40,249 nucleotides of DNA, from IMG/VR virus record IMGVR_UViG_3300015194_000007, positions 1 to 40,249 of that record. One strand, written 5' to 3'. Under the pieces are notes generated by a model. It was given only the letters and a program-made list of their open reading frames with translations, was not told where the DNA came from and ran no database searches. The stretch is from a virus. Shown one piece after another: positions 7,605 through 32,591 of this stretch; position 1 is the stretch's first letter; each line of letters starts with the position of its first letter. Position numbers and translations under genes: made by a program.

Positions 7605-7616
7605 AATATAGGAAAG
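7605..7616 (-). promoter_or_regulatory. Late motif, upstream of endolysin
   Basis: AATATAGGAAAG on plus, CTTTCCTATATT on minus. The TATAGG core ends the motif exactly 30 bases before the ATG at 7576. Here it sits between divergent genes and its AGGA may also act as a ribosome site for the plus gene at 7618. Confidence 0.7.
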
Positions 7617-7617
7617 C

Positions 7618-7872
7618 ATGGAGCGGCCAGACATCACCATTATCTGCATACTACTTATCATTGTCGTTCTGACTATTTTAAGGCAGTATGTCACCTCGGA
7701 ATTGATACCATTAAATGTTCAAACTGATGTGACAACTACTAGATTACACACTCTTCGACGACAAAATATACTCATAGAAGATGAAATTCTTTATTACGAA
7801 GCCCTTACTACCATTCAAGATGAAGCAGTACGTCAGGGATTTGTGCCTGTAAACTACTATTTTCTCAAATGA
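7618..7872 (+). CDS. FtsL/DivIC-like or spanin-like single-pass membrane protein
   Basis: An 84-residue protein with one transmembrane helix (residues about 6-22, ITIICILLIIVVLTIL), then about 45 helical residues, then EALTTIQDEAVRQGFVPV. The order TM, coiled coil, then a short E-A-x-x-x-G-[FM] block is the plan of FtsL/FtsB/DivIC septum proteins. An inner-membrane spanin has a similar plan, and the endolysin is next door. It is on the plus strand, against its neighbours, and its TGA overlaps the next ATG (ATGA), which supports both ORFs as real. Confidence 0.6.
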   Translation: MERPDITIICILLIIVVLTILRQYVTSELIPLNVQTDVTTTRLHTLRRQNILIEDEILYYEALTTIQDEAVRQGFVPVNYYFLK

Positions 7873-8234
7873 GTAGAAAAGCCTATGATTCCTCCTGGTA
7901 CTCCTCGTATTTAGTGGGTAAGCACTTCAGAAGACAGCGAAATATAGCCTACAGACTGGCTTTCAAGCGGTGTTCAATTTGTTTTAAGAAGTATGATTTG
8001 CAACCCCATCACCTGTCATATAGAGTGCTTGATCACTGGTATGAGTTTTTGTTTTTGCGGATGGTTTGTAGTCGCTGTCACAAGTGGGTACAGCAAATGG
8101 GGCCGTTTCATCTCACGAATACGGTACTCTTAACGATTAACTATTATCTCTATCGATTGCCGGCTCTTATACTATATATAATACGCTGGCTTATTTCTTC
8201 CTATTCCATACCAGCCACTCGAAAAAGAAAATAA
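7869..8234 (+). CDS. HNH-like zinc protein with hydrophobic C-terminus
   Basis: A 121-residue protein with CSICFKKYDLQPHHLSYRV and later VCSRCHKW: two CxxC knuckles around a His-His pair, the pattern of HNH endonucleases with a structural zinc. The usual final His/Asn of the HNH motif may be the His after the second knuckle. Residues about 84-112 are strongly hydrophobic and could enter the membrane, which is unusual for HNH proteins. Coupled to the FtsL-like gene by ATGA; convergent with the fibre gene at 8272, 37 bases away. It could be a homing-type insertion or a fused membrane module. Confidence 0.6.
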   Translation: MSRKAYDSSWYSSYLVGKHFRRQRNIAYRLAFKRCSICFKKYDLQPHHLSYRVLDHWYEFLFLRMVCSRCHKWVQQMGPFHLTNTVLLTINYYLYRLPALILYIIRWLISSYSIPATRKRK

Positions 8235-8271
8235 TGGTTGAGGTTACAGCTATAAATACTAGGTAAGGCAT

Positions 8272-9444: not shown

Positions 9445-9471
9445 TTACCTAGTATGCTGAGAAAGAAGGGC

Positions 9472-9484
9472 AATTATAGGAAAC
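9472..9484 (-). promoter_or_regulatory. Late motif, upstream of the fibre gene at 8272-9444
   Basis: AATTATAGGAAAC variant, right at the stop of the nozzle gene. TATAGG is exactly 30 bases before the ATG at 9444. Confidence 0.7.
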
Positions 9485-11430
9485 TACGAGGTCAGACGAA
9501 TTCGATTAGCAGCAGGCAAGGGTTTACCCTCAAGAAGTAACCATTTAAAGCTAAGGCCGAGAAACTTAAATGAGCCGGAGCTACTGGCTTCATCGAGCTC
9601 AAACTTGATTGAGCGGGATACTTTATTGAAAATAATCTCCATAGGCTGATCACTATTAAGCGTTGTTGTCGCTGCCCCCTTTGAGGTATCCCACTGAAAG
9701 GTATCCCACTTGTCATAGTCCCAGGAAATACCAGAGACCAGACTTGAGATATTAAAGGTTCCTGAGTTAAATACACCGTCATTGATGATGTATCCCGTAA
9801 TAGAACCATTAGCCACATCTTTAAACCAGAATATAGGATTCCGGTAAATCTTATACTGATCAAAGTATTTTTGATTGAAGTTCTTAGTCTGAATCTTCCA
9901 GCTGATTGCCGTTCCATTATCATCAGTCCCCGTAAACATCTTCACAATATAGCCTGTGGTATCTGACGCGTAGTAAAGCTCCTCATTGCCTAGCCCGTCT
10001 TGATAGCTGAAAAAGGAATTAGCATTGATATTATCCCAGTACCCAATCCAGGCATTAAAACGTGAATCAAAAGGATATACCCGGTTATTCGTCGTTGAGC
10101 CACCTTGAGCTAGACAGATGCCATAAATATTTCTAAAAAAGAAGGCGCAAGCATTTTGCAGTTGCGCCACATTGGCACTATCTAGTAAAGATCCATTGGA
10201 GATCTTGAGGGATTGCTCAGTTGTTCTGAGAGCATTAAAGTAATTTTGTACATTTCCCAGGGAATTAACTGAGGCTCGTCCATCCTTCATGGAGAGAAAC
10301 CAGACTGCATTATTGACCATTTTAACCGTTCTATACGAGATGCAGCCAAGTTCATTGGTAATCAGCTCTAAAGCGGGGAGACCGGAGGATGTAAATGAGA
10401 ACTTCCAAATTGATTTGTTTTTCCAGACAATAACGGTATTTTGATAGAAATAGATAGCCGTTATCTTATCCCCATCATTTTTTGAGACATCGATCCAGCC
10501 GCCTCCATTTCCCGTTGAGAAATCATCAATCTGTGTCCCGCCAGCTGAATAATAGAGTCTACTTGGGTTTGTTGTGTCTCCAGCAATAAAAAGTCTACTT
10601 AAAGCATAGATAACCATTGAGCCCTTTTGTCCACCCGTATTATTCCCCTCAGGTGGAGTGAGAATAGATGATGGGGTATCGACTCCCGTATCGTTATACG
10701 CATTCGTTGAGACAGTAGTTAGTTTTGTTTCTCCAACTCCGTTGACACTGGCTGATTTTCGGCCATAGACGACATATCCCGTAGCTCCTGCAACGGCTGT
10801 CCAGGTAAGCGCGTTAAAGTTTGTTGTAGTAAGTGTAGCGTTCCCTGTTGCTGTTCCTACAGATACACAAGCTAGCGTTTCACCATTGGCATTGTATGCA
10901 CTGACGCGGTATGAATAGGCAGTTGTCCCGGCTGCTCCTGTATTACCAATAGCTAAACTAGTGGGAGTTGTTAATACTGTATAGGTCGTTGCAACGGGTA
11001 CGCCACCAGATACAGTTATTTTAACCAGATTATCCGTGCCATTTTGCACGAAGAGGTTATCCCGAGCAATAGCGAATTCAGTCCGGAGTGACGTCGTTGT
11101 TGCAACTCCTGCAATATTAGTAGGAACACCTCCGGCTGTATAGTACTGAAGCGCTGTGCCACCTTCCCGAATAATGAACCGATTATTACTAGAGGCTGAA
11201 GTATAAAAAGAGGTTCCCCCATATACCCGTGATCCGCTAGATGAACCATAATTGATTGATCCTGTTCGCTTCTGGACACCATCAACAACAAGTATCGCAT
11301 TCTGCATGACTGATAACTCAGAATCTTTTATCAGTGATTCATCAGATAGCTTATTGATACCCCCAGGAAAACCGATTATATAATCAGTGTGTTCACTTTG
11401 ATCTTTTATATTGGTTGGAATGGCTGGCAT
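9484..11430 (-). CDS. Beta-propeller tail nozzle protein with inserted Fn3-like domain
   Basis: A 648-residue protein resembling podovirus tail-tube/nozzle proteins (T7 gp12, P22 gp10 class). The N-terminal pattern FPGGINKLSDESLIKDSEL then SVMQNAILVVDGVQKRTGS is typical. Residues about 155-255 look like an inserted fibronectin-III-like domain (TTPTSLAIG, YRVSAYNANGE, WTAVAGATGYVVYGR). Then come propeller blades with repeated W/Y-rich strands (NTVIVWKNKSIWKF, NNAVWFLSMKDG, FNAWIGYW). The ATG at 11430 is used because it lies one base after the stop of the adaptor gene; a GTG six codons upstream is possible. It would close the tail end and carry fibres. Confidence 0.8.
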   Translation of the reverse strand: MPAIPTNIKDQSEHTDYIIGFPGGINKLSDESLIKDSELSVMQNAILVVDGVQKRTGSINYGSSSGSRVYGGTSFYTSASSNNRFIIREGGTALQYYTAGGVPTNIAGVATTTSLRTEFAIARDNLFVQNGTDNLVKITVSGGVPVATTYTVLTTPTSLAIGNTGAAGTTAYSYRVSAYNANGETLACVSVGTATGNATLTTTNFNALTWTAVAGATGYVVYGRKSASVNGVGETKLTTVSTNAYNDTGVDTPSSILTPPEGNNTGGQKGSMVIYALSRLFIAGDTTNPSRLYYSAGGTQIDDFSTGNGGGWIDVSKNDGDKITAIYFYQNTVIVWKNKSIWKFSFTSSGLPALELITNELGCISYRTVKMVNNAVWFLSMKDGRASVNSLGNVQNYFNALRTTEQSLKISNGSLLDSANVAQLQNACAFFFRNIYGICLAQGGSTTNNRVYPFDSRFNAWIGYWDNINANSFFSYQDGLGNEELYYASDTTGYIVKMFTGTDDNGTAISWKIQTKNFNQKYFDQYKIYRNPIFWFKDVANGSITGYIINDGVFNSGTFNISSLVSGISWDYDKWDTFQWDTSKGAATTTLNSDQPMEIIFNKVSRSIKFELDEASSSGSFKFLGLSFKWLLLEGKPLPAANRIRLTS

Positions 11431-11431
11431 A

Positions 11432-12094: not shown

Positions 12095-12121
12095 AGGGAG
12101 AGTATGAGGGGAATTGGCCTG

Positions 12122-12134
12122 AAATATAGGAAAG
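12122..12134 (-). promoter_or_regulatory. Late motif, upstream of the adaptor gene
   Basis: AAATATAGGAAAG two bases past the stop of the repeat-fibre gene; TATAGG is exactly 30 bases before the ATG at 12094. Confidence 0.75.
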
Positions 12135-12136
12135 AG

Positions 12137-13990
12137 CTAGATAAAGATATATTGATTACCTGCCAGAAGTATTGCGGGTTTACCCTCTATGAAGATTATC
12201 CTTTTAGGAGGTTGTGAAACAGTTGAGAGAATACTAGATCTTCCAGATTGTACTTTTATACTGGCTGTAGTAATGCGCGAAATGGCTGGTTGAACTTTTG
12301 TACTAGTGACAAACCCAGCGTTTGCGATAGTTGAAACACCTGATTGGATTTTCGTTGTGGTAACTGTAACTCGCGAAACCCCGGGTTGTGTCTTGGTTGT
12401 CGTGGCAGTGATTCTTGAGATACCCGGGATAGTCTTGGTAGCTGTGGCTGTTATTCGTGAGATACCTGGTTGTGTCTTATTAACTACCTGGGTAATGCGG
12501 GAAATACCTGGCTGCACTTTAGTGACCACCTGATTGATGCGAGATAGACCTGGTTGTACTCTTGTTGTAGTGGCTGTTATTCGCGAAAGCCCTGGATTTG
12601 TCTTGGTAGTCGTAGCGGTAACTCTCGAGATGCCTGGGTTAGTTTTAATAGTTGTAGCGGTGACGCGTGAGGTACCTGATTGAGTTTTTATCGTTGTCGC
12701 GGTTATTCGAGAGATAGCGCTTTGTACTTTCGTAGTAGTCGCCGTGATACGAGATAAGCCTGGTTGCATCTTATTGGTAGTGGCCGTCACTCTCGACAGG
12801 CCGGGGTTGGTCTTAATGGTTGTACTGGTGACGCGGGATTTTCCAGGTTGCGTTTGAGTAGTCGTAGCAGTTACTCGCGACTTACCTGGATTAGTCTTGA
12901 CTGTGGTAGCAGTTACTCTAGATAAGCCAGGGTTTGTTTTAATGGTAGTTGCGGTGACTCTTGAGATACCACTTTGAATCTGCTTGGTGGTAACTGTCAG
13001 GTTAGATTTACCACTCTGAACTTGTGTAGTAGTAGCAGTGATTCGGGATTTACCTGGGTTAGTTTTTATCGTCGTAGCCGTAACTCTTGAGACACCTGAC
13101 TGGACCTTTGTTACTACCTGAGTGATTCGAGAGGTACCTGGCTGTGTGCTGGTCATTACTCTCGTGATTCGAGAAGTACCCGGGTTAGTGTTAATCGTGT
13201 TTTTGAGAATGTCTCCTTTTCCTGATTGAACCTTAATGGTAGTCGCGGTAACTCGTGATATGCCTGGTTGGGTTTTAATCGTTGTAGCGGTAACTTTTGA
13301 TATACCACTTTGTACTTTTGTCACTACTTGAGTAATACGTGAGATACCTGGCTGGGTTTTAGTCGTGGTTGCGGTAATCCTGGATAGGCCTGGGTTAGTC
13401 TTTGTGGTCGTTGCAGTAATACGCGAGAGGCCACTTTGTATTTGCTTTGTAGTGATGGTAACGCGAGACAAACCTGGGTTAGTCTTTGTGGTTGTAGCTG
13501 TTATGCGAGATAGACCTGGTTGGGTTTTTGTCGTAGTGGCTGTAATGCGAGATATTCCTGGGTTAGTTTTAACTGTACTAGCGGTAACTCGTGATATACC
13601 ACTTTGTACTTGTTTAGTCGTAGTAGAGATACGAGATAAGCCTGGATTGGTTTTAGTTGTAGTGGCTGTTATTCGGGACAAGCCTGGGTTCGTCTTGGTA
13701 GTAGTTGCTGTAATCCTGGATATACCTGGATTCATTTTCTTTGTCGTTGCTGTAACTCTTGAGACACCTGGGTTAGTTTTGATGGTCGTAGCCGTAACTC
13801 TTGAGACACCTGGATTGGTTTTCGTGGTTGTAGCAGTTACACGGGAAATACCTGGGTTAGTCTTTGTGGTGGCGACGGTGATTCTTGATAAGCCTGGTTG
13901 AGTTTGGGTAGTAGTAACTAAACCAACAGAGACAATCCTTAGTCGTTGGGTAAGGGGCTTAAATGGCTGTGAACGGCCTAGGCGTGCCAT
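12137..13990 (-). CDS. Giant repeat fibre protein: about 40 units of 14 residues
   Basis: 617 residues. After a short basic N-terminus (MARLGRSQPFKPLTQRLR) come about 40 tandem units with consensus TTxKxNPGxSRITA, where NPG alternates with QPG or QSG. The C-terminal 25 residues (KRIIFIEGKPAILLAGNQYIFI) are unrelated and beta-like. One PG or SG turn per 14 residues and alternating Thr/Ile/Val suggest a fibrous beta structure, for example a triple beta-spiral (adenovirus and reovirus shafts use about 15 residues with a conserved turn) or a beta-solenoid. If each unit adds about 1-1.3 nm the shaft would exceed 40 nm; this is inference. Similar Thr/Lys-rich repeats occur in uncultured phages. It lies among fibre genes and lacks an obvious ribosome site. 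Confidence 0.85.
   Translation of the reverse strand: MARLGRSQPFKPLTQRLRIVSVGLVTTTQTQPGLSRITVATTKTNPGISRVTATTTKTNPGVSRVTATTIKTNPGVSRVTATTKKMNPGISRITATTTKTNPGLSRITATTTKTNPGLSRISTTTKQVQSGISRVTASTVKTNPGISRITATTTKTQPGLSRITATTTKTNPGLSRVTITTKQIQSGLSRITATTTKTNPGLSRITATTTKTQPGISRITQVVTKVQSGISKVTATTIKTQPGISRVTATTIKVQSGKGDILKNTINTNPGTSRITRVMTSTQPGTSRITQVVTKVQSGVSRVTATTIKTNPGKSRITATTTQVQSGKSNLTVTTKQIQSGISRVTATTIKTNPGLSRVTATTVKTNPGKSRVTATTTQTQPGKSRVTSTTIKTNPGLSRVTATTNKMQPGLSRITATTTKVQSAISRITATTIKTQSGTSRVTATTIKTNPGISRVTATTTKTNPGLSRITATTTRVQPGLSRINQVVTKVQPGISRITQVVNKTQPGISRITATATKTIPGISRITATTTKTQPGVSRVTVTTTKIQSGVSTIANAGFVTSTKVQPAISRITTASIKVQSGRSSILSTVSQPPKRIIFIEGKPAILLAGNQYIFI
12215..13925 (-). repeat. 42-bp coding tandem repeat region
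   Basis: Nucleotide period of 42 bases matching the 14-residue protein unit, about 40 copies. Units differ at many third positions and in the TCA/GGT/CCT choices, so the array is old and kept by selection on protein rather than recently amplified. Confidence 0.9.
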
Positions 13991-16533: not shown

Positions 16534-17076
16534 TTAGTTCTCCTGATACTGCAAAGCAATATAAAGCGTTGCTGTATCTCCTGCTGCTGCTGTTGATGCT
16601 GTTTGAAGTTGTGTAGGGAAATATTGAGACTGTCCTGCTGCTGATATTGAAGCTGAAGCTGCATTATTAGGCCCTGTGACTCCAAATAGAACGGCTGCTC
16701 CTGATCCAACCGCTACTCCTCCTGATGATGAATCAGTAGTAAGGGCTGCATTAGCTGATGTTGCTGGTGTTGCGTAGGTAGCACTAACAATCGATTTCAA
16801 GGTTAAACCTGTGGCAAGAGCTGAGCCTGCTGCTCCTGCTATTGTGGTATTAGCTGAAAATTTCCCCGTAGCTACTGAGTTAAAAGTACCGGATAAATCG
16901 CCATATTGATATTTGGTAAAGCCGTTATTTCCTGCGGTGATAGGGGAGGCTGAGTAAGCGGTTGCCGTATCGTCAATATTCTTCCAGTTCACGTTGGTGA
17001 CAGTCACAGCGGTAGTAGTACCACGACCCCCTGAGAGTGTTCCATTATCTTCTTTAAATGCGTATGTTGCGGCCAT
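16534..17076 (-). CDS. Virion-associated Ala/Thr-rich protein (180 aa)
   Basis: Low-complexity beta protein beginning MAATYAFKEDNGTLSGGRG and ending DTATLYIALQYQEN. The pattern of Gly/Ala/Ser/Thr runs with a terminal aromatic strand suits a fibre or capsid decoration protein. The late motif is exactly 30 bases before the ATG, and the leader lacks a Shine-Dalgarno site but has CATACT just before ATG, as in other late genes. Confidence 0.65.
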   Translation of the reverse strand: MAATYAFKEDNGTLSGGRGTTTAVTVTNVNWKNIDDTATAYSASPITAGNNGFTKYQYGDLSGTFNSVATGKFSANTTIAGAAGSALATGLTLKSIVSATYATPATSANAALTTDSSSGGVAVGSGAAVLFGVTGPNNAASASISAAGQSQYFPTQLQTASTAAAGDTATLYIALQYQEN

Positions 17077-17104
17077 ATGAGTATGTTAAAGTATTAAAAA
17101 GTGG

Positions 17105-17117
17105 AATATAGGAAAGT
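17105..17117 (-). promoter_or_regulatory. Late motif, upstream of 16534-17076
   Basis: AATATAGGAAAGT; TATAGG exactly 30 bases before the ATG at 17076, 12 bases past the upstream stop. Confidence 0.75.
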
Positions 17118-18057: not shown

Positions 18058-18096
18058 AATCTATCACCTCCTCTATCGTAAGGATCTAATAACTGG

Positions 18097-18109
18097 AATA
18101 TAGGAAAGT
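18097..18109 (-). promoter_or_regulatory. Late motif, upstream of 17806-18057
   Basis: AATATAGGAAAGT with a 41-base gap to the ATG, which here has its own strong ribosome site. Confidence 0.65.
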
Positions 18110-18115
18110 CGCCTA

Positions 18116-18253
18116 TTATCTGTCGAGATACATCAGAATAAGACCAATTAACATGACAATAGCTCCGACTAGGCCCACTTGTCCGGCGCCTGGTACTAAA
18201 CTATTTAACGCTATAAGTATAAATAAACCTGTAAAATATATTTTACTTCCCAT
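18116..18253 (-). CDS. Small two-helix membrane protein (45 aa)
   Basis: IYFTGLFILIALNSLVPG and VGLVGAIVMLIGLILMYL form two hydrophobic helices with a short Gly-rich turn, followed by DR. GGAGGTGAGAATC precedes the ATG. It overlaps the end of the glycosyltransferase gene by eleven bases. It could be a holin-type protein, or a membrane partner of the glycosyltransferases. Confidence 0.65.
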   Translation of the reverse strand: MGSKIYFTGLFILIALNSLVPGAGQVGLVGAIVMLIGLILMYLDR

Positions 18254-19229
18254 GATTCTCACCTCCTATCACTCGTAATACTTCCTCAATTCGTGACTTA
18301 TATGTTCCTGTCTTGAGGGCTTGTTCATGTCCTGCCTTGGCTATTGCCTCACGTTCTTCCTCATTGTCTAGGAAGTATTGGACCGTTTTCTCTGCCGACT
18401 CTAGGCTTGAATACGACACATAATGTATACCTTCGAAGAAGCCATATTTTTCTAAGCTCTTGAGCTCTGGTATCTTATTGGTGAGAAGAAATGAGCCTGT
18501 CATCAGCGTCTCAAAAAACCTCATGTTTGCATCATTTCCAATTGAGATATTAAAGACGACCTTTGACTCACAGAACCGCTTGGCTGCATCCTCAAACATA
18601 TTCTTAGCGGGAAAAGCTGGGTTTCGACTGCCAAAATAGAAATTCGGAAAGGCTTTAAACATATAATCTAGAACATCAATGCGGGGTATATTGATCCCGT
18701 TTCCTTTGTGATACTCCTGAATATGGCCGATGAAGCAGAGATCATACTTTTTGAGTATTTCAAAGTGGGGATAGGCTTGCGGTTCTGCTGCATGGGGGAG
18801 ATAGAGGGCTGGTTGAACCTTTCCACTATCGATTATCTTTACCTTTTGTAGATTATGAGCGTTGTAGGTGTAAGTATACTCATCTACAGCACTCTCCTGG
18901 TTAAAGAATACATAGTCAAATTGCCTCGCCTTTTCAAGTCTATAGCCATCATCTAAATGTGTATCCGAGGCTACATAGATAGTCTTGCCACCATCTTTTG
19001 GTAGTTCATAAGCAAGGGCTTTTTCCCGTCCTACAACTGCATCTTCACCCCAGTCAATCCACCAATGATAATCAAATTTACCCAGACCTTTAATATCATT
19101 ACCTGGAATTAAGTGCATGACTTCGGTATTAGGGAGTTTTTGTAACTGATTAAAGTAGTACAATGGTGGACCGTCATTTCGGCCATATCGATGGTCATAC
19201 CATATTGCGTGTCTAGTTGGTTTCATCAT
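18243..19229 (-). CDS. Glycosyltransferase, CgeB/GT-B type
   Basis: About 328 residues from the ATG at 19229 (AGGATAAAG upstream; a GTG five codons earlier is possible). The C-terminal domain has MRFFETLMTGSFLLTNK, then YVSYSSLESAEKTVQYFLD and REAIAKAGHEQALKTGTYKSR, typical of the CgeB-like / Glyco_trans_1_2 family. The N-terminal half is a Rossmann-like domain (WIDWGEDAV, YVASDTH, YDLCFIGHI). It transfers a sugar from a nucleotide donor to an unknown acceptor, possibly a phage structural protein, phage DNA or host surface polymer. Third of three sugar genes. Confidence 0.8.
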   Translation of the reverse strand: MMKPTRHAIWYDHRYGRNDGPPLYYFNQLQKLPNTEVMHLIPGNDIKGLGKFDYHWWIDWGEDAVVGREKALAYELPKDGGKTIYVASDTHLDDGYRLEKARQFDYVFFNQESAVDEYTYTYNAHNLQKVKIIDSGKVQPALYLPHAAEPQAYPHFEILKKYDLCFIGHIQEYHKGNGINIPRIDVLDYMFKAFPNFYFGSRNPAFPAKNMFEDAAKRFCESKVVFNISIGNDANMRFFETLMTGSFLLTNKIPELKSLEKYGFFEGIHYVSYSSLESAEKTVQYFLDNEEEREAIAKAGHEQALKTGTYKSRIEEVLRVIGGENHGK

Positions 19230-19380
19230 TTTCTTTATCCTCACTTTCCTGCTGTCTGCTCATCATGTGATCTAGCCACATAGCAAAGCTAATTACAGCA
19301 CGTCTAGCTTCTTTATTGAGTTTTTTCTTTTTCTCAACTTCGGTTATCCACTCTGTTGCTGCATGTTCCACTGGATTCAT
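19213..19380 (-). CDS. Small helical protein between glycosyltransferases (55 aa)
   Basis: MNPVEHAATEWITEVEKKKK begins a Lys/Glu-rich helical protein. Its ATG shares one base with the stop of the upstream gene (TGATG), and its end overlaps the start of the next glycosyltransferase. Likely expressed by coupling. Function not recognised. Confidence 0.6.
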   Translation of the reverse strand: MNPVEHAATEWITEVEKKKKLNKEARRAVISFAMWLDHMMSRQQESEDKENDETN

Positions 19381-20633
19381 CATAGTTTTTCTCCTACTGC
19401 GATAAAGCTAATACTGTTACCTGATGGCTGGACACTGGTGACATTGAGTCCTAAGGCTGTTAAAAAGTTGGTTGTACTTTGAGGAGTGTAGCCGTGGACA
19501 TGCTCAAGATTCATCGGGATTGTTTCATGAACTGCATGATTTGGCAGCGCTAGAATGAGTCTCCCGCCCTTGCGTAATTTTGAAATCCAGAGTAAAAGCA
19601 CTGTTAATGGGTCAATCATATGCTCAAGAACGTGACGGGCTATAATGACATCTTGGGAGTTATCATCAACCGGAATATCTTTTGACACATCGGCATGAAT
19701 ATCTGCATCTGACAGCGGATTGCCCTCAAGACTTGGTATTTCCTCACCTTTAGGGATGAAGTCCACTCCCTTAGCCCGCTTGAGTGTTTTGTTATTGGCA
19801 CAACCGAGATCAAGTATTGCCGCATCTTTAGTCTTGATCATGGATCGAATCTCATCACCTTCTATGTCTCGCTTTGCTTGAACAAAGTCATACTCTGGCA
19901 TGGTATAGGCTCCCTTCATCGTCTCAAACCATTTCTTCAAACCATGCTTTCGGATTAATGCATGATTGATCTTTTCTGTTTTCTCAAAGCTATTCCAGCC
20001 GTTGGGACTGTTTGGATCACCATAGACTCGCTCACCAGTTTTAAAGCCGTGGTGGTAGATAAAGACGGTTCGATCAACGAGTAATTTATATCCTGCATCT
20101 CTGAGTTTTATTGACCAGTCAAAGTCATCGCCGCCCGGTAGGGTCAAATCCATGGCAGCTACCTGATTGAATGCCGAGCGACGCATAAGCACGCAAAATC
20201 CGATTAAGAACTTAGATTCAAATACGTGATAGGGAACATCAACGAAGATATTTTGCAGTCCCATTACGACGTTACTACTGGGCCCGACGGCTGCTACTTT
20301 CGGATCTCTAAAGTGTTGCAGCATGATATTAAGCCATAGTCTGCTTGTTGTTGGAACCATTGCATCATCATTAAAAAAGCAGACAAATTCAGAATCAGAG
20401 TTCTCAAGGCCGAGCATGATCCCACCCTCCCAGCCTGTATTGCGTCCCGCATTAATCACTCTGACCCCCTCTTGTCCTTTGAGAAAATCACAGCTGTTAT
20501 CATGGCCGTTATTAACGACTACTATTTCAAGGATATTCTTGGTTGCGTGATTACGAAGCAGGGAAGTCACTGCCTGATGCAGATATGTTTGATTATTGAA
20601 TGTTGGTATGATTACTGATACGAGTGGTTTCAT
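19380..20633 (-). CDS. Bifunctional glycosyltransferase GT2 - SAM methyltransferase
   Basis: 417 residues. Residues 1-235 are a family 2 glycosyltransferase: VSVIIPTFNNQTYL, GRNTGWEGGIMLG, then the DxD-like FFNDDAMVP and PGGDDFDWSIKLRDAGYKL. Residues about 265-415 are a class I methyltransferase: ILDLGCANNKTL (SAM-binding Gly loop), DVIIARHVLEHMIDP and LRKGGRLILALPNH. Such fusions can add and then methylate a sugar or cap a glycan chain. Its ATG overlaps the stop of the upstream glycosyltransferase (20630-20633, ATGA). Confidence 0.85.
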   Translation of the reverse strand: MKPLVSVIIPTFNNQTYLHQAVTSLLRNHATKNILEIVVVNNGHDNSCDFLKGQEGVRVINAGRNTGWEGGIMLGLENSDSEFVCFFNDDAMVPTTSRLWLNIMLQHFRDPKVAAVGPSSNVVMGLQNIFVDVPYHVFESKFLIGFCVLMRRSAFNQVAAMDLTLPGGDDFDWSIKLRDAGYKLLVDRTVFIYHHGFKTGERVYGDPNSPNGWNSFEKTEKINHALIRKHGLKKWFETMKGAYTMPEYDFVQAKRDIEGDEIRSMIKTKDAAILDLGCANNKTLKRAKGVDFIPKGEEIPSLEGNPLSDADIHADVSKDIPVDDNSQDVIIARHVLEHMIDPLTVLLLWISKLRKGGRLILALPNHAVHETIPMNLEHVHGYTPQSTTNFLTALGLNVTSVQPSGNSISFIAVGEKL

Positions 20634-21385
20634 CGTGTTGTTTTGTTATATTTACTCACTGTTTCGTCCCCTAAATCAACCCCAGCTTGCTTGATGTACT
20701 CCTCAAATCCTGCCTCATCGATCACTTGGGGGTTTTTAATATGCCCCATTTTATTTGACGTATCCATAAAGATTCTTCCTCCTGCTTCTTGGACTTGAAC
20801 ACAAAACCATATATCCTCACCAGTTTGTGTCGTACTCATGAAATATGGCTCTTTCATCTTTTCTCGAACAAACTTCATGTCGATACAGACTCCACCAAAC
20901 CCTACTGCGTCGCACTCAACTAGGGTATCTTTCGGATACTTCTTCACTGATTGATTAAAGTAGTAATCCTGATGTCTGACTCCGTCCCATCCCTTCTTCA
21001 CTGTGTATAAAACTGGATAGTGGGGAGGTGTTCGCATAAATGCGAGTGCTCCCAGAACTGTTATTTCTGGAAACTCCTCCATCCTCAGTATTATTTTCTT
21101 AGCAAAGTCTGGGTCAAGAATCATATCATCATCAAATTGAATGATGTAATCCATTCCCTCATCCCGAGCCACCCTGATCATCTTTTCCCGTGCCATTTGG
21201 GTCAGTAACCTGCCCGTTGTATACCAGTAGAATTCGTATCTGACTGGACGCTTCTCCCATTTCATCCGTTCTTCCCAGGCTCCGAGCCTCATGGAGTGAA
21301 CGAGATGATTGTCATACGCTTCCGGTAGTGTGTGTCCCTCTGTTGGGACACTAATTGCAACTTTCTTTACAACTCCCGAACCCAT
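20630..21385 (-). CDS. GT2-like glycosyltransferase
   Basis: 251 residues of GT-A type. VAISVPTEGHTLPEAYDNH is the first strand, YWYTTGRLLTQMAREKMIR and DYIIQFDDDMILDPDFAKK carry the DxD metal site (FDDDM), and YFMSTTQTGEDIWFCVQ provides the catalytic-side acidic GEDIWF block. It would transfer an activated sugar. First enzyme of the sugar island, coupled to the bifunctional enzyme by an ATGA overlap. Confidence 0.8.
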   Translation of the reverse strand: MGSGVVKKVAISVPTEGHTLPEAYDNHLVHSMRLGAWEERMKWEKRPVRYEFYWYTTGRLLTQMAREKMIRVARDEGMDYIIQFDDDMILDPDFAKKIILRMEEFPEITVLGALAFMRTPPHYPVLYTVKKGWDGVRHQDYYFNQSVKKYPKDTLVECDAVGFGGVCIDMKFVREKMKEPYFMSTTQTGEDIWFCVQVQEAGGRIFMDTSNKMGHIKNPQVIDEAGFEEYIKQAGVDLGDETVSKYNKTTR

Positions 21386-21519
21386 ATCAAAAACCTTTCT
21401 ATTAGTGTTGGTGTGGCCTCAATAATGTCGTGACCTGGGTGTTGATTGAAATCGAGTGAGGTCAGAAGCTTTTTGTCTCGTAAACATCGGTAGTACTGCA
21501 TAGGAGTATTCTTATTCAT
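21367..21519 (-). CDS. Small hypothetical protein at the head of the sugar operon (50 aa)
   Basis: MNKNTPMQYYRCLRDKKLL begins a compact helical protein that overlaps the start of the GT2 gene by 19 bases. A CCTATATTT element at 21530-21538 resembles the late motif, but lies closer (about 10 bases) and lacks the ACTTT part. Function unknown. Confidence 0.5.
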   Translation of the reverse strand: MNKNTPMQYYRCLRDKKLLTSLDFNQHPGHDIIEATPTLIERFLIWVREL

Positions 21520-21580
21520 AAGGTGAGTAAATATAGGGTTGTGTGCCTAGTTATTGCGTGTCAGTCGTACTTTCCTATAA

Positions 21581-21617
21581 CGCGGGAGAGGGCTCGCCCA
21601 GAGGTCCCTCTCCCGCG
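21581..21617 (-). terminator. Strong 12-bp hairpin after the capsid decoration gene
   Basis: CGCGGGAGAGGG pairs perfectly with CCCTCTCCCGCG around a 13-base loop, nine bases past the decoration gene stop. There is no T-run on the minus strand, so it may be an mRNA 3'-end stabiliser or a weak terminator separating the capsid genes from the sugar island. A late motif in plus orientation (21569-21580) abuts it. Confidence 0.65.
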
Positions 21618-23204: not shown

Positions 23205-24047
23205 TTATTTGAGGCCGAGTTCGGCCATAACTTGCTTACCTATGTCTCTGATTGAACCTCTCGATTCAGTGTCAGACGTTGATTGAGGCGATGATGATGT
23301 TGACGGAAACTTTGCTCGCTTGGCTTTCGCTGCTGTAGACAATTCTTCCTTACCATCTGTCTTGGATCTACCAATGAGCGCATCGATTCGTCGAATTGCT
23401 TTTTTGGTAGCTGCGACTGGATCCTGCTTCCACGTCTGATCGGATTCAACGAGACTTTCAACCATTTGGCCGAAAGTTACTTTTTCACCGTCTTCTGTCT
23501 GGTAGGCTAGTGATGCATCGGTCAGACGCGCGTCCACTTTGGCTGCTTCTGATATGCCACTAGTAATCCTGTCTACTTCTCTTTGTTGAGATTGAGTCTG
23601 ATTAAATTGGTTGAGTGTGAACTCAAGACCCATCTTCATCATTTCAATCGCATCATCCGAGTAGCCAGCTTCTCTGTATTTCTGTTCCAAAGCTGTAAGC
23701 TGTGGATTTGATACAGATTGCTCTCTCTTTGACAGCATCTCCTCAATAATTGGAATGTGCTGCTGATACTTGTCATACTGCGCTGCTTTCTGCTTAATGC
23801 CTTCAGCCTCGCGTTTCGCATCTGCAATTTCCTGCGTCTTCTTCGTGAATGCCGCTTGCATCTGCTTATATGCCGGTTTCAGCTCCTCAGGTACGGTATT
23901 AGGATCAAAGAAACTCTCTGATTCTGACTGTGCCTGGTCTATAGGTTGTGGAGTCCCGAGTTGGGATGGTTCCGCTCCCTGTGTTTGTTCTACAGCTTCG
24001 GTTGTTCCTTCTATGGATTCCGTTACTGGTGTATTTAAGTCGTCTAT
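23205..24047 (-). CDS. Scaffolding protein, apparently with a non-AUG start
   Basis: About 280 residues: an acidic, Glu/Gln/Pro-rich N-terminus, long helices (AFTKKTQEIADAKREAEGIK, EALEQ-type helices through residue 200) and a Ser-rich basic end (GSIRDIGKQVMAELGLK), the usual plan of phage scaffolds. The frame is open back to AGAGGGGGTGA, but after it come ATC ATC ATA with no ATG, GTG or TTG; the first ATG (23861) is 62 codons further and lacks a ribosome site. The ATA at 24047 is nine bases after GGGGG, near the spacing at capsid genes. The region upstream of 23861 has scaffold-like composition. Confidence 0.75.
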   Translation of the reverse strand: MDDLNTPVTESIEGTTEAVEQTQGAEPSQLGTPQPIDQAQSESESFFDPNTVPEELKPAYKQMQAAFTKKTQEIADAKREAEGIKQKAAQYDKYQQHIPIIEEMLSKREQSVSNPQLTALEQKYREAGYSDDAIEMMKMGLEFTLNQFNQTQSQQREVDRITSGISEAAKVDARLTDASLAYQTEDGEKVTFGQMVESLVESDQTWKQDPVAATKKAIRRIDALIGRSKTDGKEELSTAAKAKRAKFPSTSSSPQSTSDTESRGSIRDIGKQVMAELGLK

Positions 24048-24129
24048 GATGATTCACCCCCTCTCATGAGTCCCAAACGAGTTATTCCGTTCAGGGGTTA
24101 TAAGTGCAGTATGTGAAAATAAGTTGCGG

Positions 24130-24142
24130 ATTATAGGAAAGT
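24130..24142 (-). promoter_or_regulatory. Late motif at the end of the 1436-residue gene
   Basis: ATTATAGGAAAGT encodes the last residues TFL and stop of the giant gene. The downstream gene is the scaffold, about 84 bases away with a strong ribosome site, so spacing is unlike the 30-base class. Confidence 0.65.
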
Positions 24143-27100: not shown

Positions 27101-28441
27101 TAACTGATCAGCTGAACGGCTATTACTGAAATCTCCTGGTCTGGCTTGGGGGATGATGTCGGATTGTGAAGCTGGTAAGTTCTCAGCTATCTTAGGGTTT
27201 GGGACAAAGCTACTCGGTTTTATATTCTTTGAATTTACTTCTTTAATAGACAATCCTGGTCCTGGTATATCGATCTTCTCTGGTATTCCTGCTGCTTTAT
27301 TCATCTCAGCAAACATAGCAGCCTCTTTCTCAGGTGACATTTTGACTGGTAATCCCCGCTTATTGCCAAACATCTGGCTTACACCTGGTAGGGAAGGATC
27401 AGAGAGAATATCAGGAGCAATATGCTGCTGTGGTGACATGTTATTAAGTAAGCCCGGTGGGGTTGGGGATTCAATACTGGACGATTTAGCAAACTTACCT
27501 AGCAAATCGCGAGGTATATTTTTTACATTCTTCATAGCAGCTTCATTTGCTGCTTTATCACTCAGGCCATGTGCTAAAGCAACATTCTTCATGATGTTAA
27601 AAAGCTTTCCCGATGCGTAGCTTCCAGCTGTTAAACCTCCTGCTAGTAGTCCACCACCGATTGCATTTGTACCTGTACTGATTGCTGCTCCTGTCAATTG
27701 ATCCTGAAGTGATTTATTGCGTCCTTCATTAAGTCCACTAGCTAAGCCAAATCCTGCTCCGAGTTTTAGTCCTTGGGGTACTTCATGCTTGAGAAGGGCC
27801 ATAAGGGTACGCTTAGGTGCTGCTTTTGCAACCTGTTCAGCCATACCCATAGCTCCTTCTCCCCCCACAGCATTAAGAATAGGCTCAGCTACTCCACCAA
27901 GATTTCCTAGTATCTGTTGAGGTGTTGCATTGATGCCTCCTGCATTGTATCCAAGACGAGCTAGGGGACTTTTGAGCGTGTTATATCCTGTTGCTTGTTG
28001 ATGTGTAAGAGCACCACCTGCTAAGCGACCAAGATCCAAAGCCGGATCTATTATCCCTTTACCTACAATTGATGATCCAATGTCCATAGGCATGTTAGCA
28101 ACGGTTGAGAAGATCTGTCCTGGTATTCCTGAATTAACTGGTGCTTGAAAGCGGGGGATGTAATCGGTAATTGAGCGATTATTATTGATAAAGTTGGCTG
28201 GTTGAAACGCTTGTTGTCCTGACTGTTGAAAGGCTGGAGTGGCTTTTTGAAGACCTACTAAACTCTGGAAGAAGGGAAGATGAGTCACTCCATACGCTGC
28301 TTTATTTAAGAGATCCTGACCGAAACCCACTGGCTGAACCTGTTGTCCTTGTGGAGTAAATGCTGGTTGAGTCGCGACGTTCACTTTTGGTTGCGCTTGT
28401 CTCCCAGTGAAGAAGTTTGTCAGCCTTGATGCTAAGTCCAT
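24131..28441 (-). CDS. Giant internal virion / ejection protein (1436 aa)
   Basis: Residues 1-330 contain hydrophobic, Gly/Ala-rich segments (LGAGFGLASGLN, ISTGTNAIGGGLLAGGLTAG) that could span a membrane on ejection. The middle is a Pro/Ser/Gln-rich linker (about 330-560). Residues about 560-1130 resemble large polyvalent protein-associated regions of phages: KKNYATHIWDLTDPAKAAEY, SGGLFHVKNTGMDYLGSHLA, WIGRQGVLAPDYQEGRFKRT. The C-terminus is very basic. Such proteins travel in the capsid and enter the cell with the DNA, as T7 gp16-like proteins do. The late motif lies 32 bases upstream; no ribosome site. A protease or transglycosylase active site is not seen. Confidence 0.7.
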   Translation of the reverse strand: MDLASRLTNFFTGRQAQPKVNVATQPAFTPQGQQVQPVGFGQDLLNKAAYGVTHLPFFQSLVGLQKATPAFQQSGQQAFQPANFINNNRSITDYIPRFQAPVNSGIPGQIFSTVANMPMDIGSSIVGKGIIDPALDLGRLAGGALTHQQATGYNTLKSPLARLGYNAGGINATPQQILGNLGGVAEPILNAVGGEGAMGMAEQVAKAAPKRTLMALLKHEVPQGLKLGAGFGLASGLNEGRNKSLQDQLTGAAISTGTNAIGGGLLAGGLTAGSYASGKLFNIMKNVALAHGLSDKAANEAAMKNVKNIPRDLLGKFAKSSSIESPTPPGLLNNMSPQQHIAPDILSDPSLPGVSQMFGNKRGLPVKMSPEKEAAMFAEMNKAAGIPEKIDIPGPGLSIKEVNSKNIKPSSFVPNPKIAENLPASQSDIIPQARPGDFSNSRSADQLFAKKNLEKVPAGNPEPLPWEPNGDAHVSTTPKNQQPPSPVQLGSETKSIQPQTSSIDSHKPLPSNQVSSSSDIINQNLKGSNYKYDEGLGAGKPRYPGEKTPLIGTPQGTLKDALSSRYVAGEQISQRAAVLKGLQDQGIKSPVEHNLYRDVIEHPEDMSKVLTQVKNPQAFEKAVQAHREFTDYIHSQNLESGGNVGYKKNYATHIWDLTDPAKAAEYQTMLNGKAKNFKGYFNKERVFNDIREGNAAGFQLKNKTAQEDITQLASTAQKEIQGRVFANKLKSTFPGEVHIMKNDGEPPANAIQLTIPGMKGTYVSPNLYEKIKFLQPQDFGKVAKVMDFVSGGIKHLELSGGLFHVKNTGMDYLGSHLAYGKMPRVDQAAHVFFSSKAMNEYRQGLIESGQMDKMLKAGVTLSKAQDFPSAEGITGLRSTISKVNPLSMLNRATFTRLEDYFKSSVFNIMDKKGMIDFSTPEKAKASEAIGAQLNNIFGSQNRSIGDSVLKSKFGQWIGRQGVLAPDYQEGRFKRTLSAINPNFTGKQLGKLPARTAGNDFALRTLAGRLIVTAALAEISRRVISGQFNPDLKSILQNDIIDPSYPTPFTNKNSKGQDVTQVAHMPSSNVSDILKLGQDPEHFAISHLGAGVSAGIGYVANQDYFGNKLSNTNNSGEKIGNIIKSKLPIPIVQAQKVLSGKISPGNAAINIAGDRVTQNPADPIVQANKLASNAYDAAYKSALASGKSDLSAQMSGLSAFKKTKQTGQSPYDATGQNKGVANGTTLLTKDNKVIDLKPKTKGQGIDAFTNQNDTYSKAREVWKANLDQSQKDAAFKQLGVTNDQVRYDYIANHSNDVKTQYILSKNMNHQDLLDRLTTGRQKSVSGSIFASDGVINSLKDQGLLSNSEATALKNKDFNKDGSPVTKKGTGKKASLKVDFRTFAKKLTEKPIHMSTSRVTKVKSYTPKKVHQPKVSEFKLRGKVLSLKNKARKPQTFL

Positions 28442-28470
28442 ATAGAGAAAGTATGCAAATAATGGGGGTT

Positions 28471-28483
28471 AAATATAGGAAAG
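28471..28483 (-). promoter_or_regulatory. Late motif, upstream of the giant gene
   Basis: AAATATAGGAAAG; TATAGG 32 bases before the ATG at 28441 and two bases past the upstream stop. Confidence 0.75.
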
Positions 28484-28485
28484 GA

Positions 28486-29562: not shown

Positions 29563-29589
29563 AGAGGTATGATAGGACGCGGAGTTCTC

Positions 29590-29603
29590 AAATATAGGAA
29601 AGT
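29590..29603 (-). promoter_or_regulatory. Late motif, upstream of 28486-29562
   Basis: AAATATAGGAAAGT directly against the upstream stop; TATAGG exactly 30 bases before the ATG at 29562. Confidence 0.75.
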
Positions 29604-29951: not shown

Positions 29952-29952
29952 A

Positions 29953-30120: not shown

Positions 30121-30134
30121 ATATCTCACCTCCT

Positions 30135-30281
30135 TTATGATCGGTTAGAAACTTGTGCTACTTCTCCCTGTTTCACGAAATCAAGACCCTTATCAGTTGT
30201 ACTAAGGGTATCGGTTTCTTCTGGTTTCTTGGTATCTATTGACGCGATAAACTCGCGCTTCTTTGCTGATCCTTTTGCCAT
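30135..30281 (-). CDS. Small virion-region protein, tandem paralogue A (48 aa)
   Basis: MAKGSAKKREFIASIDTKKP begins a small charged protein preceded by GAGGAGGTGAAGATAT. It shares start, spacing and the block LSTTDKGLDF with its downstream neighbour. Placed between the portal-linked gene and head genes; may be a minor capsid, connector or scaffold protein. Confidence 0.75.
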   Translation of the reverse strand: MAKGSAKKREFIASIDTKKPEETDTLSTTDKGLDFVKQGEVAQVSNRS

Positions 30282-30311
30282 ATATCTTCACCTCCTCGCT
30301 CCATTAGCTAC

Positions 30312-30530
30312 CTAGTGCATAGGTTGAGCTGGTTGGGCTTGGTCTTCCTGTTGATCTTCTGCTGTCTCAGCTTTCAGAGCTGTAAGAATAAGATCAATCT
30401 TTTGATTCATCTGACTGAGCATCGTTTGAATACCACTATCATCGTTTCCTTGATCGGGAGTCGGTGCTTGTGCTGGTTGTGCTCCTTGGGAAATTCCCAT
30501 GGCTTGCTGTTGTAATCCTTTTCCAAACAT
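30312..30530 (-). CDS. Gln-rich small protein after portal (72 aa)
   Basis: MFGKGLQQQAMGISQGAQPA begins a Gln/Ala/Pro-rich protein with one central helix (IQTMLSQMNQKIDLILTALK) that could form a trimer or dimer. The start is one base past the portal stop, with an AAAGGAGGT ribosome site inside the portal end. It may be a portal-associated or scaffold-like protein. Confidence 0.65.
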   Translation of the reverse strand: MFGKGLQQQAMGISQGAQPAQAPTPDQGNDDSGIQTMLSQMNQKIDLILTALKAETAEDQQEDQAQPAQPMH

Positions 30531-30531
30531 A

Positions 30532-32550
30532 TTACATACCTCCTTTCAGTTGAGATAAGTTAACTTGCTGTGGTTGCTGCTCTGTTGGTTGATTTGGCTC
30601 AGGCATAGGAGGTTGACCACTATTAATCTTATCCATCATGGTTGACTGATGATCCATCATCTGGGTTTGAGCCGCCTGTTGTTCATCCTGTGCCGCTTGC
30701 TGGGGATTTAACAGGTTATCATTTTGCAGGAGTTGAATACCGGCCGGGGTAGTCGTATCAGCATTGATACGTACCGCGACTTTCGGTCTAAAGCCCATCT
30801 GCATGATTTGCTGTTGTTGTTCCTCAGGATTAATGTAGCGATCAGCATCCCTCTTATGGAATCCTGCTTGGAGGGTATCACGCCAGATTAACTCTAAGTT
30901 AAGAATACCGGGACGCTGTGCTTCTGATTTGAGGGCTGTATCAAGGAGATCAAGAGAGTCTTGTTTCATCTGTACTTTATTGAGTGAGAGTGATTCAACC
31001 TCGATATCCACCTTATCAAGAAGGGACGGATCACCAAGGACTCGCAATACATCAGGTGTTACAGGCTCCTCAACGCCTGCTATTTCTAAGAATTGATTAT
31101 CCTCAGGTTTCCAGTTAAGAGCGAGTTGTTGGAATTGGAAGGTGATAACTGTTCTGATAAAGCGGGCAATCTTCTTTCTCTTGCGTCTTGACGCTCGATC
31201 AGCTGCTTCAGAGTAGACTTGGATACCTCGAGGGGTCTTCACTTGGGATTGAGATCCCCCGTTCTCTAAATCAAATGTGCCCGCTGTCTTTTCGAGATCT
31301 GTTCTGACCATATCGATACCCGTTGCTACTTCATGGCCGAGTGGTGCAGGGGAAAGGTACGTGGGAGGCGTGCCAGCATACTTCACTGTTCTGCCTACTC
31401 GTGGATCACTAAAGGCTGCTTCATCTACCTCACTATTCATCTCAACTAAAGGCTTAGGATTCGCCATCTTTCGAGTATGAGACAGGATTTGCGAGCGATA
31501 CATCTCGAGTTCTTGGATGAGTGGCATGAGGTGCTTAGCGTCGCCAAACTTCCAGAACTTATTAGCTAAACCGTAATTACCTAGGATAAAGAGTGGTTTG
31601 GTTGGGTAAGGACATTCTTCTACCTTTAACTCAACGGTGTTAGTAAAGAAGATATGGTATTCCTTGTCCCACGTCCACTCACTATTGACGATTCCTTTAG
31701 CCATATCTTCAGGGAGTATGCCATAGTATTCATAGACTTTAACCCGTTTAAGATCATCACTGACTACATCTGATCCCTTCTCAATCTCGGTATCAATCTC
31801 ACCATCTGCCTCTGAGTCACCTGTATAGATCTTCTCACTCGCTGTGACAGTCTTACCAAACACAGCCTTGACCTTCTCTGCGTTCCAGACTTGTTCTTTA
31901 AAGTAGTAAGGGCAATGATCTGCATCAAGAATGTAATTAAAGATAGTCTCAGGTGAAAAATAGATCTTGAAAGGATTCTCAACGGTTGCGTCCGGCATGT
32001 CATAGAGAGGCACTTCATACTCTTTCGATGTAGTCTTCGTGAGTGGAAGGCCTCGATCATCAAGGATAATCTGACCTGATTGGGGATCAACAAGGGGTGT
32101 TTGGATATCCTCAGTTACTTTCTTGGTACTGACTTTGTAAGGACTGGTGAGAAAGCCCATCCCAAGTAATCCGAAGTAGGTTCCTACATCTTCGATCTTT
32201 TCCTCTAAGTTCTGTTTGTCCCAGAGGAGATCATAGGCTGAGTTATAGATATCTTCAACGACCTGAAAATCCTTAGTCCTTCCCTTAATAAAGATCTCAG
32301 GCTTTTCATCAAAGATGGATGCGCCTTCTGATTCAATCTTTCGGAAGATATAGCCGATACGGACGCGATCTCTGACTTCTGCTGTGTCCTCGAAGTTATC
32401 AATGTTATACTCAGCAATCCACTTCCTCCATGCAGCATGAGGCTTCTTACTCCATGCTTTAGCAACTGATAAGCGGGACTTGAGGAGAGACAGTCGTTCA
32501 GTTGAGATCTGATCAACTAGCGCGTTCGTTACAATCTTTTGATCATCCAT
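30532..32550 (-). CDS. Portal protein (podovirus type)
   Basis: 672 residues, the length of P22-type portals. N-terminal helical domain (AWRKWIAEYNIDNFED), then VGTYFGLLGMGFLTSPY, YFKEQVWNAEKVKAVF, and the crown-like Gln-rich C-terminus (PQQAAQDEQQAAQTQMMDHQ). The stem-clip part includes FWKFGDAKHLMPLIQELEMY and PLVEMNSEVDEAAFSD. Twelve copies form the DNA channel at one capsid vertex. It follows terminase and precedes head genes. Late motif exactly 30 bases upstream of the ATG; no ribosome site. Confidence 0.88.
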   Translation of the reverse strand: MDDQKIVTNALVDQISTERLSLLKSRLSVAKAWSKKPHAAWRKWIAEYNIDNFEDTAEVRDRVRIGYIFRKIESEGASIFDEKPEIFIKGRTKDFQVVEDIYNSAYDLLWDKQNLEEKIEDVGTYFGLLGMGFLTSPYKVSTKKVTEDIQTPLVDPQSGQIILDDRGLPLTKTTSKEYEVPLYDMPDATVENPFKIYFSPETIFNYILDADHCPYYFKEQVWNAEKVKAVFGKTVTASEKIYTGDSEADGEIDTEIEKGSDVVSDDLKRVKVYEYYGILPEDMAKGIVNSEWTWDKEYHIFFTNTVELKVEECPYPTKPLFILGNYGLANKFWKFGDAKHLMPLIQELEMYRSQILSHTRKMANPKPLVEMNSEVDEAAFSDPRVGRTVKYAGTPPTYLSPAPLGHEVATGIDMVRTDLEKTAGTFDLENGGSQSQVKTPRGIQVYSEAADRASRRKRKKIARFIRTVITFQFQQLALNWKPEDNQFLEIAGVEEPVTPDVLRVLGDPSLLDKVDIEVESLSLNKVQMKQDSLDLLDTALKSEAQRPGILNLELIWRDTLQAGFHKRDADRYINPEEQQQQIMQMGFRPKVAVRINADTTTPAGIQLLQNDNLLNPQQAAQDEQQAAQTQMMDHQSTMMDKINSGQPPMPEPNQPTEQQPQQVNLSQLKGGM

Positions 32551-32577
32551 TCAGTAATTGTCGTTGAAGTGACAATC

Positions 32578-32591
32578 AAATATAGGAAAGT
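32578..32591 (-). promoter_or_regulatory. Late motif, upstream of portal
   Basis: AAATATAGGAAAGT, four bases past the sigma-like gene stop; TATAGG exactly 30 bases before the portal ATG at 32550. Confidence 0.75.

What the first reader, a model, noticed from the sequence alone, without database searches (positions are those of the whole stretch)
7605..32591. Late-gene motif ACTTTCCTATATTT at a fixed 30-base distance from start codons
On the minus strand this motif precedes the endolysin, fibre, adaptor, 16534-17076, coiled-coil, portal and giant-protein genes. The gap between the CCTATA core and the ATG is exactly 30 bases in six cases and 32 in the seventh. Five of these genes (adaptor, 16534-17076, Gln-rich, portal, giant) have no recognisable Shine-Dalgarno site, while the fibre and endolysin genes have only a short AGGT or AGGA near the start. 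Several share CATACT just before ATG. Other genes of the phage have strong AGGAGGTGA sites. The fixed spacing suggests one element sets both transcript start and a short special leader: a phage late promoter coupled to non-SD translation, or an RNA-processing site.
Basis: seen in the sequence. Interest (0 to 1): 0.8.

Follow-up and report, generated by a model that had tools for sequence, protein, structure and literature searches.

The report
Phage late promoters starting on AUG
The repeated motif is the upstream half of the phage's own late-gene promoters, placed so that the messenger RNA should begin exactly at the gene's start codon with no leader, and related phages keep this layout while the motif itself changes from phage to phage.

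Summary
The motif and its spacing are real and far above chance. So this is a sigma-70-type promoter in which a phage-specific box replaces the -35 element and the predicted late mRNAs are leaderless. In the window 11 of 11 sites fit: seven leaderless, one with a 2-nt leader, three with longer leaders, all three with a Shine-Dalgarno site.

Eight relatives lack the exact motif, but each has its own box at the same place (CTTATAA, CTCATAA, GTTATAA or GGATAAA). Over 30 sites nAnnnT sits at offset 18 in 29, against 0-10 at other offsets. Where the ATG slips 1-2 bases, the -10 stays with the box (9 of 9). A ninth relative, fetched later, fits too. This argues strongly against RNA processing and an archaeal TATA box.

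Leaderless phage late mRNAs and -35 replacement are each known; the combination is a new variant. Host unknown; no transcripts mapped.

The parts
32578..32591 (-). -35-position box ACTTTCCTATATTT of the portal promoter; -10 GACAAT 32557-32562; predicted +1 at 32550 = A of ATG (leaderless)
29590..29603 (-). box ACTTTCCTATATTT of the Gln-rich/coiled-coil gene promoter; -10 TATCAT 29569-29574; +1 29562 = A of ATG
28471..28484 (-). box CCTTTCCTATATTT of the giant-protein promoter; -10 CATACT 28450-28455; +1 28443, leader 2 nt (AU) before ATG 28441
   Evidence: -10 stays 18 nt from the box although the ATG is at 32
24129..24142 (-). box ACTTTCCTATAATC of the scaffold-like gene promoter; -10 CATACT 24108-24113; +1 24101; leader of about 50 nt with SD GAGAGGGGGTGA
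21529..21542 (-). box ACAACCCTATATTT; -10 AAGAAT 21508-21513; +1 21501 = A of ATG of a 44-codon ORF overlapping the start of glycosyltransferase-like gene 20630-21385
18096..18109 (-). box ACTTTCCTATATTC; -10 TACGAT 18075-18080; +1 18068; 11-nt leader with SD before ATG 18057
17104..17117 (-). box ACTTTCCTATATTC; -10 TAACAT 17083-17088; +1 17076 = A of ATG
12122..12135 (-). box TCTTTCCTATATTT of the adaptor promoter; -10 CATACT 12101-12106; +1 12094 = A of ATG
9472..9485 (-). box AGTTTCCTATAATT of the fibre promoter; -10 CATACT 9451-9456; +1 9444 = A of ATG
7604..7617 (-). box GCTTTCCTATATTC of the endolysin promoter; -10 AATAAT 7583-7588; +1 7576 = A of ATG
37364..37377 (-). weaker box TGATTCCTATAATT upstream of the operon that holds terminase and the region-4-like gene; -10 TACGAT 37343-37348; +1 37336; 18-nt leader with SD before ATG 37318
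32595..32945 (-). 116-aa sigma-region-4-like protein directly upstream of portal; probable reader of the box (inferred)
37699..37727 (-). perfect TTGACA-17-TATAAT promoter 7 nt before ATG 37691: ordinary sigma-70 promoter, also leaderless, outside the late set

Best explanation
The motif is the upstream recognition element, in the -35 position, of about eleven mostly late phage promoters read by host RNA polymerase. Host sigma region 2 reads the -10 hexamer (YAnnMT; A-11 and T-7 nearly invariant) 18 nt downstream of CCTATA. Initiation falls on the purine 7 nt after the -10, which for most structural genes is the A of the AUG, so these mRNAs are leaderless and need no SD. Where +1 lies clearly upstream of the start codon, the gene has an SD. 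A phage-encoded factor, most likely the stand-alone sigma-region-4-like protein encoded next to portal, reads the phage-specific box in place of host sigma region 4 and TTGACA. Shown by sequence: the box/-10/ATG geometry, its conservation among phages and the SD contrast. Inferred: the exact +1, late timing, and which protein reads the box. The stated confidence is for the leaderless-promoter reading; the region-4 protein as reader alone is about 0.5.
For: Over 30 sites in nine phages nAnnnT stands 18 nt after the box in 29, against 0-10 at all other offsets 10-27 and 37 of 251 box matches elsewhere. The one exception is an SD-led gene in G003. At the 9 sites whose ATG is 31 or 32 away, the -10 stays at 18 in all 9. 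Four window sites found without regard to ATG spacing also have it. Each relative has its own box at -37 to -31, in front of orthologous portal, adaptor, fibre or giant-protein genes. L119, fetched later by portal homology, fits: CTTATA-N18-GATAAT, 4-nt leader. All 11 window +1 positions are purines; the 3 longer-leader genes have SDs and the other 8 do not. A perfect TTGACA-17-TATAAT lies 7 nt before an ATG in the window and in G002, so sigma-70 promoters with leaderless placement exist here without the phage box. Region-4-like gene in 8 of 8 contigs covering the terminase-portal junction (window, G002, G003, G013, L043, L045, L046, L119); Pfam Sigma70_r4 in 6 of 7 homologues, best E 5e-7; best fold matches are sigma region-4 domains.
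Against: No transcript 5' ends are mapped. In relatives the boxes were chosen partly by their distance to ATG, so the ATG spacing there is not fully independent (the -10 is). L046 has the region-4-like gene but no box I could find. The window's region-4 protein is below Pfam cut-offs and the fold matches have non-significant E-values. The host is unknown, so its capacity for leaderless translation is untested.
Confidence: 0.88

Rival explanations
1. RNA-processing site: a longer late transcript is cut near the motif, leaving a short or absent leader.
For: Fixed distance from the motif to the ATG, co-directional genes, motif in the transcribed strand.
Against: The invariant partner is a -10 hexamer 18 nt away, not the ATG: in 9 of 9 sites with shifted ATG the -10 stays with the box. 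A-11 and T-7 are the bases a sigma factor requires. The box sequence changes freely between phages while its position is kept.
Confidence: 0.04
2. Promoters as described, but the box is read by something other than the region-4-like protein: host sigma itself, an alternative host sigma, or another phage activator.
For: The conserved block is about 14 bp, longer than a -35 hexamer; L046 has the region-4-like protein but no visible box; several phage proteins have no assigned function.
Against: A diverging box with a constant -10 points to a phage-encoded reader; the region-4-like protein is a conserved candidate of sigma-4 type, and the more distant relatives without it also lack boxes.
Confidence: 0.45
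3. Archaeal TATA boxes: an archaeal virus with TATA-like signals about 30 bp upstream of leaderless genes.
For: CTTATAA and GTTATAA look like TATA boxes; archaeal leaderless genes have TA-rich signals near -30 (PMC3160421); one relative sits in a Nitrososphaeraceae MAG.
Against: Near-invariant A-11 and T-7 in 29 of 30 sites; TTGACA-17-TATAAT promoters; a sigma-region-4-like gene; a CHAP-type endolysin (just below cut-off). The other MAG names are bacterial and discordant.
Confidence: 0.02
4. Chance or a dispersed repeat with no function.
For: The window has other repeats.
Against: 6 against 0.01 expected in shuffles; spacing conserved in relatives with different box sequences.
Confidence: 0.01

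Closest known systems
Leaderless middle/late mRNAs of Thermus thermophilus phage phiYS40 (and extended -10 late promoters of P23-45)
   Same: Phage later genes expressed from mRNAs without a leader by host RNA polymerase (PMC3594737; PMC7403470).
   Different: P23-45 middle/late promoters are of the extended -10 class, whereas here a conserved box sits at the -35 position with fixed spacing. No sequence relation to these phages was found or looked for specifically.
T4 middle promoters (MotA box, sigma appropriation)
   Same: A phage DNA box replaces the -35 element while the host sigma -10 is kept (PMC2988021).
   Different: The MotA box is centred at -30, 12 +/- 1 bp from the -10; here the CCTATA core is 18 nt from it, in register with a normal -35. 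MotA is a two-domain protein acting with AsiA; the candidate here is a single region-4-like domain. T4 uses this for middle genes.
Leaderless genes with TANNNT about 12 bp before the start (Deinococcus-Thermus, Actinobacteria and others)
   Same: Same -10 to start-codon distance; in Deinococcus a -35 placed 17 bp upstream boosts such promoters (PMC3160421, PMC12340547).
   Different: Here the promoters carry a phage-specific -35-position box and serve phage structural genes; the host group is unknown.
Sigma-70 family region 4
   Same: Profile, predicted fold and helix-turn-helix resemble sigma region-4 -35-binding domains.
   Different: It is a stand-alone protein of about 85-130 aa; no region 2 was seen in it.

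Membership tests
Sigma-70-type promoter | -10 hexamer with A-11 and T-7 at a fixed place | tested here: met
   29 of 30 sites in nine phages; 11 of 11 in the window
Sigma-70-type promoter | -35 element TTGACA 16-18 bp upstream of the -10 | tested here: not met
   replaced by phage-specific boxes ending in ATAA/ATAW; true TTGACA-TATAAT promoters occur elsewhere in the window
Leaderless gene | -10 about 12 bp upstream of the start codon and no SD | tested here: met
   seven window starts, plus 28441 with a 2-nt leader
Leaderless gene | primary transcript 5' end at the start codon | not testable with these tools
   needs 5'-end mapping
T4 MotA-type middle promoter | MotA box 12 +/- 1 bp from the -10 | tested here: not met
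   box core is 18 nt from the -10 and of different sequence (PMC2988021)
T4 MotA-type middle promoter | encodes MotA and AsiA | not tested
   no specific search was made for either protein
Sigma-70 region 4 domain | profile match above curated cut-off | tested here: inconclusive
   window protein below cut-off (Sigma70_r4_2 E 0.008); 6 of 7 homologues match Sigma70_r4 to some degree, best E 5e-7
Sigma-70 region 4 domain | region-4 fold | tested here: inconclusive
   model pLDDT 76; best matches are sigma region-4 domains (3vfz: TM 0.79 by target, rmsd 1.4) but none with E below 0.001
Archaeal TATA promoter | TATA box without a fixed bacterial -10; archaeal host | tested here: not met
   invariant nAnnnT at -12 to -7 and TTGACA/TATAAT promoters present; the host itself was not identified

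The most novel reading that the evidence does not exclude
The phage clade carries a stand-alone sigma region-4 domain that takes the place of host sigma region 4 on the polymerase and reads a fast-diverging, phage-private -35 box. One small protein would thereby switch host polymerase to a whole set of leaderless late genes: a split-sigma late switch coupled to SD-independent translation.
Probability: 0.4. Interest if true: 0.75.

Novelty: new variant of a known kind. Interest (0 to 1): 0.57.

Why it matters
One promoter layout appears to set both where transcription starts and that translation is SD-independent. It is repeated about eleven times in a 40-kb genome and kept across phages whose upstream box has diverged. 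A changing box, a constant -10 and a small region-4-like gene beside them make a natural series for studying how a -35 reader and its DNA site evolve together. It also shows that searching relatives for the literal motif would have missed the system, and that start-codon calls in such viral contigs should allow for leaderless starts.

Tried and rejected
Portal as a single-protein query found no relative in viral contigs or in the phage collection; the capsid protein worked. A literal box + -10 + ATG pattern over all viral contigs gave 51 contigs with one hit each; none encodes a relative of the window's proteins or holds a second box, so these look like chance. The region-4 alignment was too divergent for a collection scan, and the window's region-4 protein has no tblastn match in the phage collection. 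A capsid search of 380 genomes from the phylum of the Gottesmanbacteria relative found only the one already known; the host stays unknown, and the discordant MAG names of the relatives probably reflect binning. The syntenic 'DNA-directed RNA polymerase' ORF of MW202803 is a short cysteine-rich (zinc-ribbon-like) protein, not the region-4 protein, and that phage shows no box; MW202497, which has an annotated ECF-like sigma factor, shows none either. Consensus scanners show no excess of sigma-70 promoters or intrinsic terminators in the window, as expected if the -35 is non-canonical. Primary papers on P23-45 are not held; these phages are cited through reviews. Agreement between box type (C or non-C at -36) and region-4 subgroup was considered, but it follows the phage phylogeny and proves nothing.

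Full report
OBSERVATION. The motif is real. In the 40,249-base window (an IMG/VR virus record) TTTCCTATA occurs nine times on the minus strand and twice on the plus strand; dinucleotide shuffles average 0.5 in all. CCTATA stands exactly 30 bases before the ATG of the genes starting at 32550, 29562, 17076, 12094, 9444 and 7576, and 32 bases before the ATG at 28441. TTTCCTATA-N30-ATG occurs 6 times against a shuffle mean of 0.01. The SD contrast also holds.

WHAT SETS THE 30. In every case a hexamer with A at its second and T at its sixth base begins 18 bases after CCTATA. The hexamers are GACAAT, TATCAT, CATACT, TAACAT, CATACT, CATACT and AATAAT at the seven reported sites, and TACGAT, CATACT, AAGAAT and TACGAT at four further sites (37372, 24137, 21537, 18104) taken without regard to an ATG. 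This is what the -10 element of a bacterial promoter looks like. Seven bases past it is the expected +1, and at seven sites that is the A of an ATG (the seventh being a 44-codon ORF at 21501). In the '32' case the -10 stays at 18 and the predicted leader is just AU. At 37372, 18104 and 24137 the predicted leaders are 18, 11 and about 50 nt, and each of these genes has a strong SD. So the rule inside the window is simple: +1 at the start codon, no SD; +1 well upstream, SD.

RELATIVES. The capsid protein brought in related contigs, a tail protein brought L059 and portal brought L119. The window's literal box is not conserved, but positional k-mer counts show CCTTATA, ACTTATA and GGATAAA enriched at exactly -37 to -31 in three relatives. 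Boxes by phage: CCTTATAA (G001), ACTTATAA/ACTCATAA (G002), GGATAAA (G003), AGTTATAA or GTTATAA (G004, L043, L045), CTCATAA (G013, L059). They precede orthologous portal, adaptor, fibre and giant-protein genes, among others. Over 30 sites in nine phages (window included) nAnnnT is at offset 18 in 29, against 0-10 at every other offset from 10 to 27, and in 37 of 251 box matches elsewhere. In the nine sites whose ATG is at 31 or 32, the hexamer remains at 18 in all nine. L119, fetched after these rules were fixed, shows CTTATA-N18-GATAAT before its portal gene with a predicted 4-nt leader. More distant relatives (capsid identity about 50% or less: G006, G007, G009, L047) show nothing of the kind.

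CAVEAT ON SELECTION. Boxes in the relatives were chosen partly through their distance to ATG, so the ATG spacing there is not an independent test; for G003, L043, L045 and L059 the exact-30 count is weak taken alone. The -10 was not used to choose sites and is the strong evidence.

READER OF THE BOX. The 116-aa protein at 32595-32945 lies directly upstream of portal. Homologues lie in the same place in G002, G003, G013, L043, L045, L046 and L119, that is, in every relative of this group whose contig covers that junction. No homologue was found in the more distant phages (G006, G007, G009; L044 and L047). Pfam Sigma70_r4 matches 6 of 7 homologues (best E 5e-7; window member below cut-off). The profile finds SigF and FliA region 4 in the PDB. 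The predicted fold (pLDDT 76) matches sigma region-4 domains best, with probability near 1 but no significant E-value. The window also has a textbook TTGACA-17-TATAAT promoter 7 bases before an ATG, and so has G002. So the same -10 and the same leaderless placement exist without the phage box, and the late set differs in its -35. The economical reading is that a phage protein of sigma-4 type reads the box in place of host region 4. That step is inferred. L046, which has the protein but no box I could find, is the main loose end.

ALTERNATIVES. RNA processing fails because the invariant distance is to a -10, not to the ATG, and because the box diverges while its place is kept. An archaeal TATA box was considered seriously, since archaeal leaderless genes have TA-rich signals near -30 (PMC3160421) and one relative is in an archaeal MAG. 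It fits poorly with the A-11/T-7 hexamer, the TTGACA/TATAAT promoters, the CHAP-type endolysin and the sigma-like protein.

KNOWN SYSTEMS. Leaderless middle/late mRNAs are known in Thermus phage phiYS40 (PMC3594737), and P23-45 has extended -10 middle and late promoters (PMC7403470). Replacement of the -35 by a phage element is known from T4 middle promoters (PMC2988021). TANNNT about 12 bp before the start is an accepted sign of bacterial leaderless genes (PMC3160421, PMC12340547). What I did not find described is the combination: a phage-private, evolving box at the -35 position with fixed spacing in a set of leaderless late promoters, with a stand-alone region-4-like gene beside them. The library searched is only part of the literature.

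Noticed in passing
window 23205-24053 (-): The scaffold-like gene has no ATG, GTG or TTG at its conserved N-terminus: a strong SD (GAGAGGGGGTGA) is followed by ATC ATC ATA GAC. The G001 orthologue starts with GTG at this place, one base out of register. Either a rare AUC/AUA start or a one-base difference or assembly error.
   Followed up: partly
window 21580-21617: A long GC-rich hairpin (CGCGGGAGAGGG...CCCTCTCCCGCG) between the capsid block and the promoter at 21529-21542, flanked on the plus strand by a copy of ACTTTCCTATA (21569) without a -10. No T run on the minus strand.
   Followed up: no
window 36396-36409 (+): A near-perfect plus-strand copy of the box (ACTTTCCTATATAT) with no -10 at 18 and no gene start at 30; unexplained.
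   Followed up: no
window 12137-13990 (-): 617-aa protein built of about 14-aa (42-nt) repeats such as ATTTKTNPGxSRVT.
   Followed up: no
window 1283-1582 and 39781-40080; 1-110 and 1666-1775: Paralogous ORFs and repeats near both contig ends (82% and 95% identical), a local duplication or a circular-junction effect.
   Followed up: no
window 18243-21385 (-): Three genes between capsid and tail, two of which read like glycosyltransferases, conserved in several relatives at 42-57% identity.
   Followed up: no
window 37918-37953 and 38453-38487 (-): More sigma-70-like promoters placed 6 nt before an ATG outside the late set (TTGACA-17-TATGTT; TTTACC-16-TATGAT), suggesting that leaderless placement is not limited to late genes.
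   Followed up: partly
L042, L043, L044: Phage contigs of this group or distant kin sit in MAGs named Nitrososphaeraceae, Melioribacter and Gottesmanbacteria; the discordance suggests misbinning.
   Followed up: partly
L046: A relative with the region-4-like gene beside portal but no detectable late boxes; it does have TTTACA-17-TATAAT 8 nt before an ATG.
   Followed up: partly
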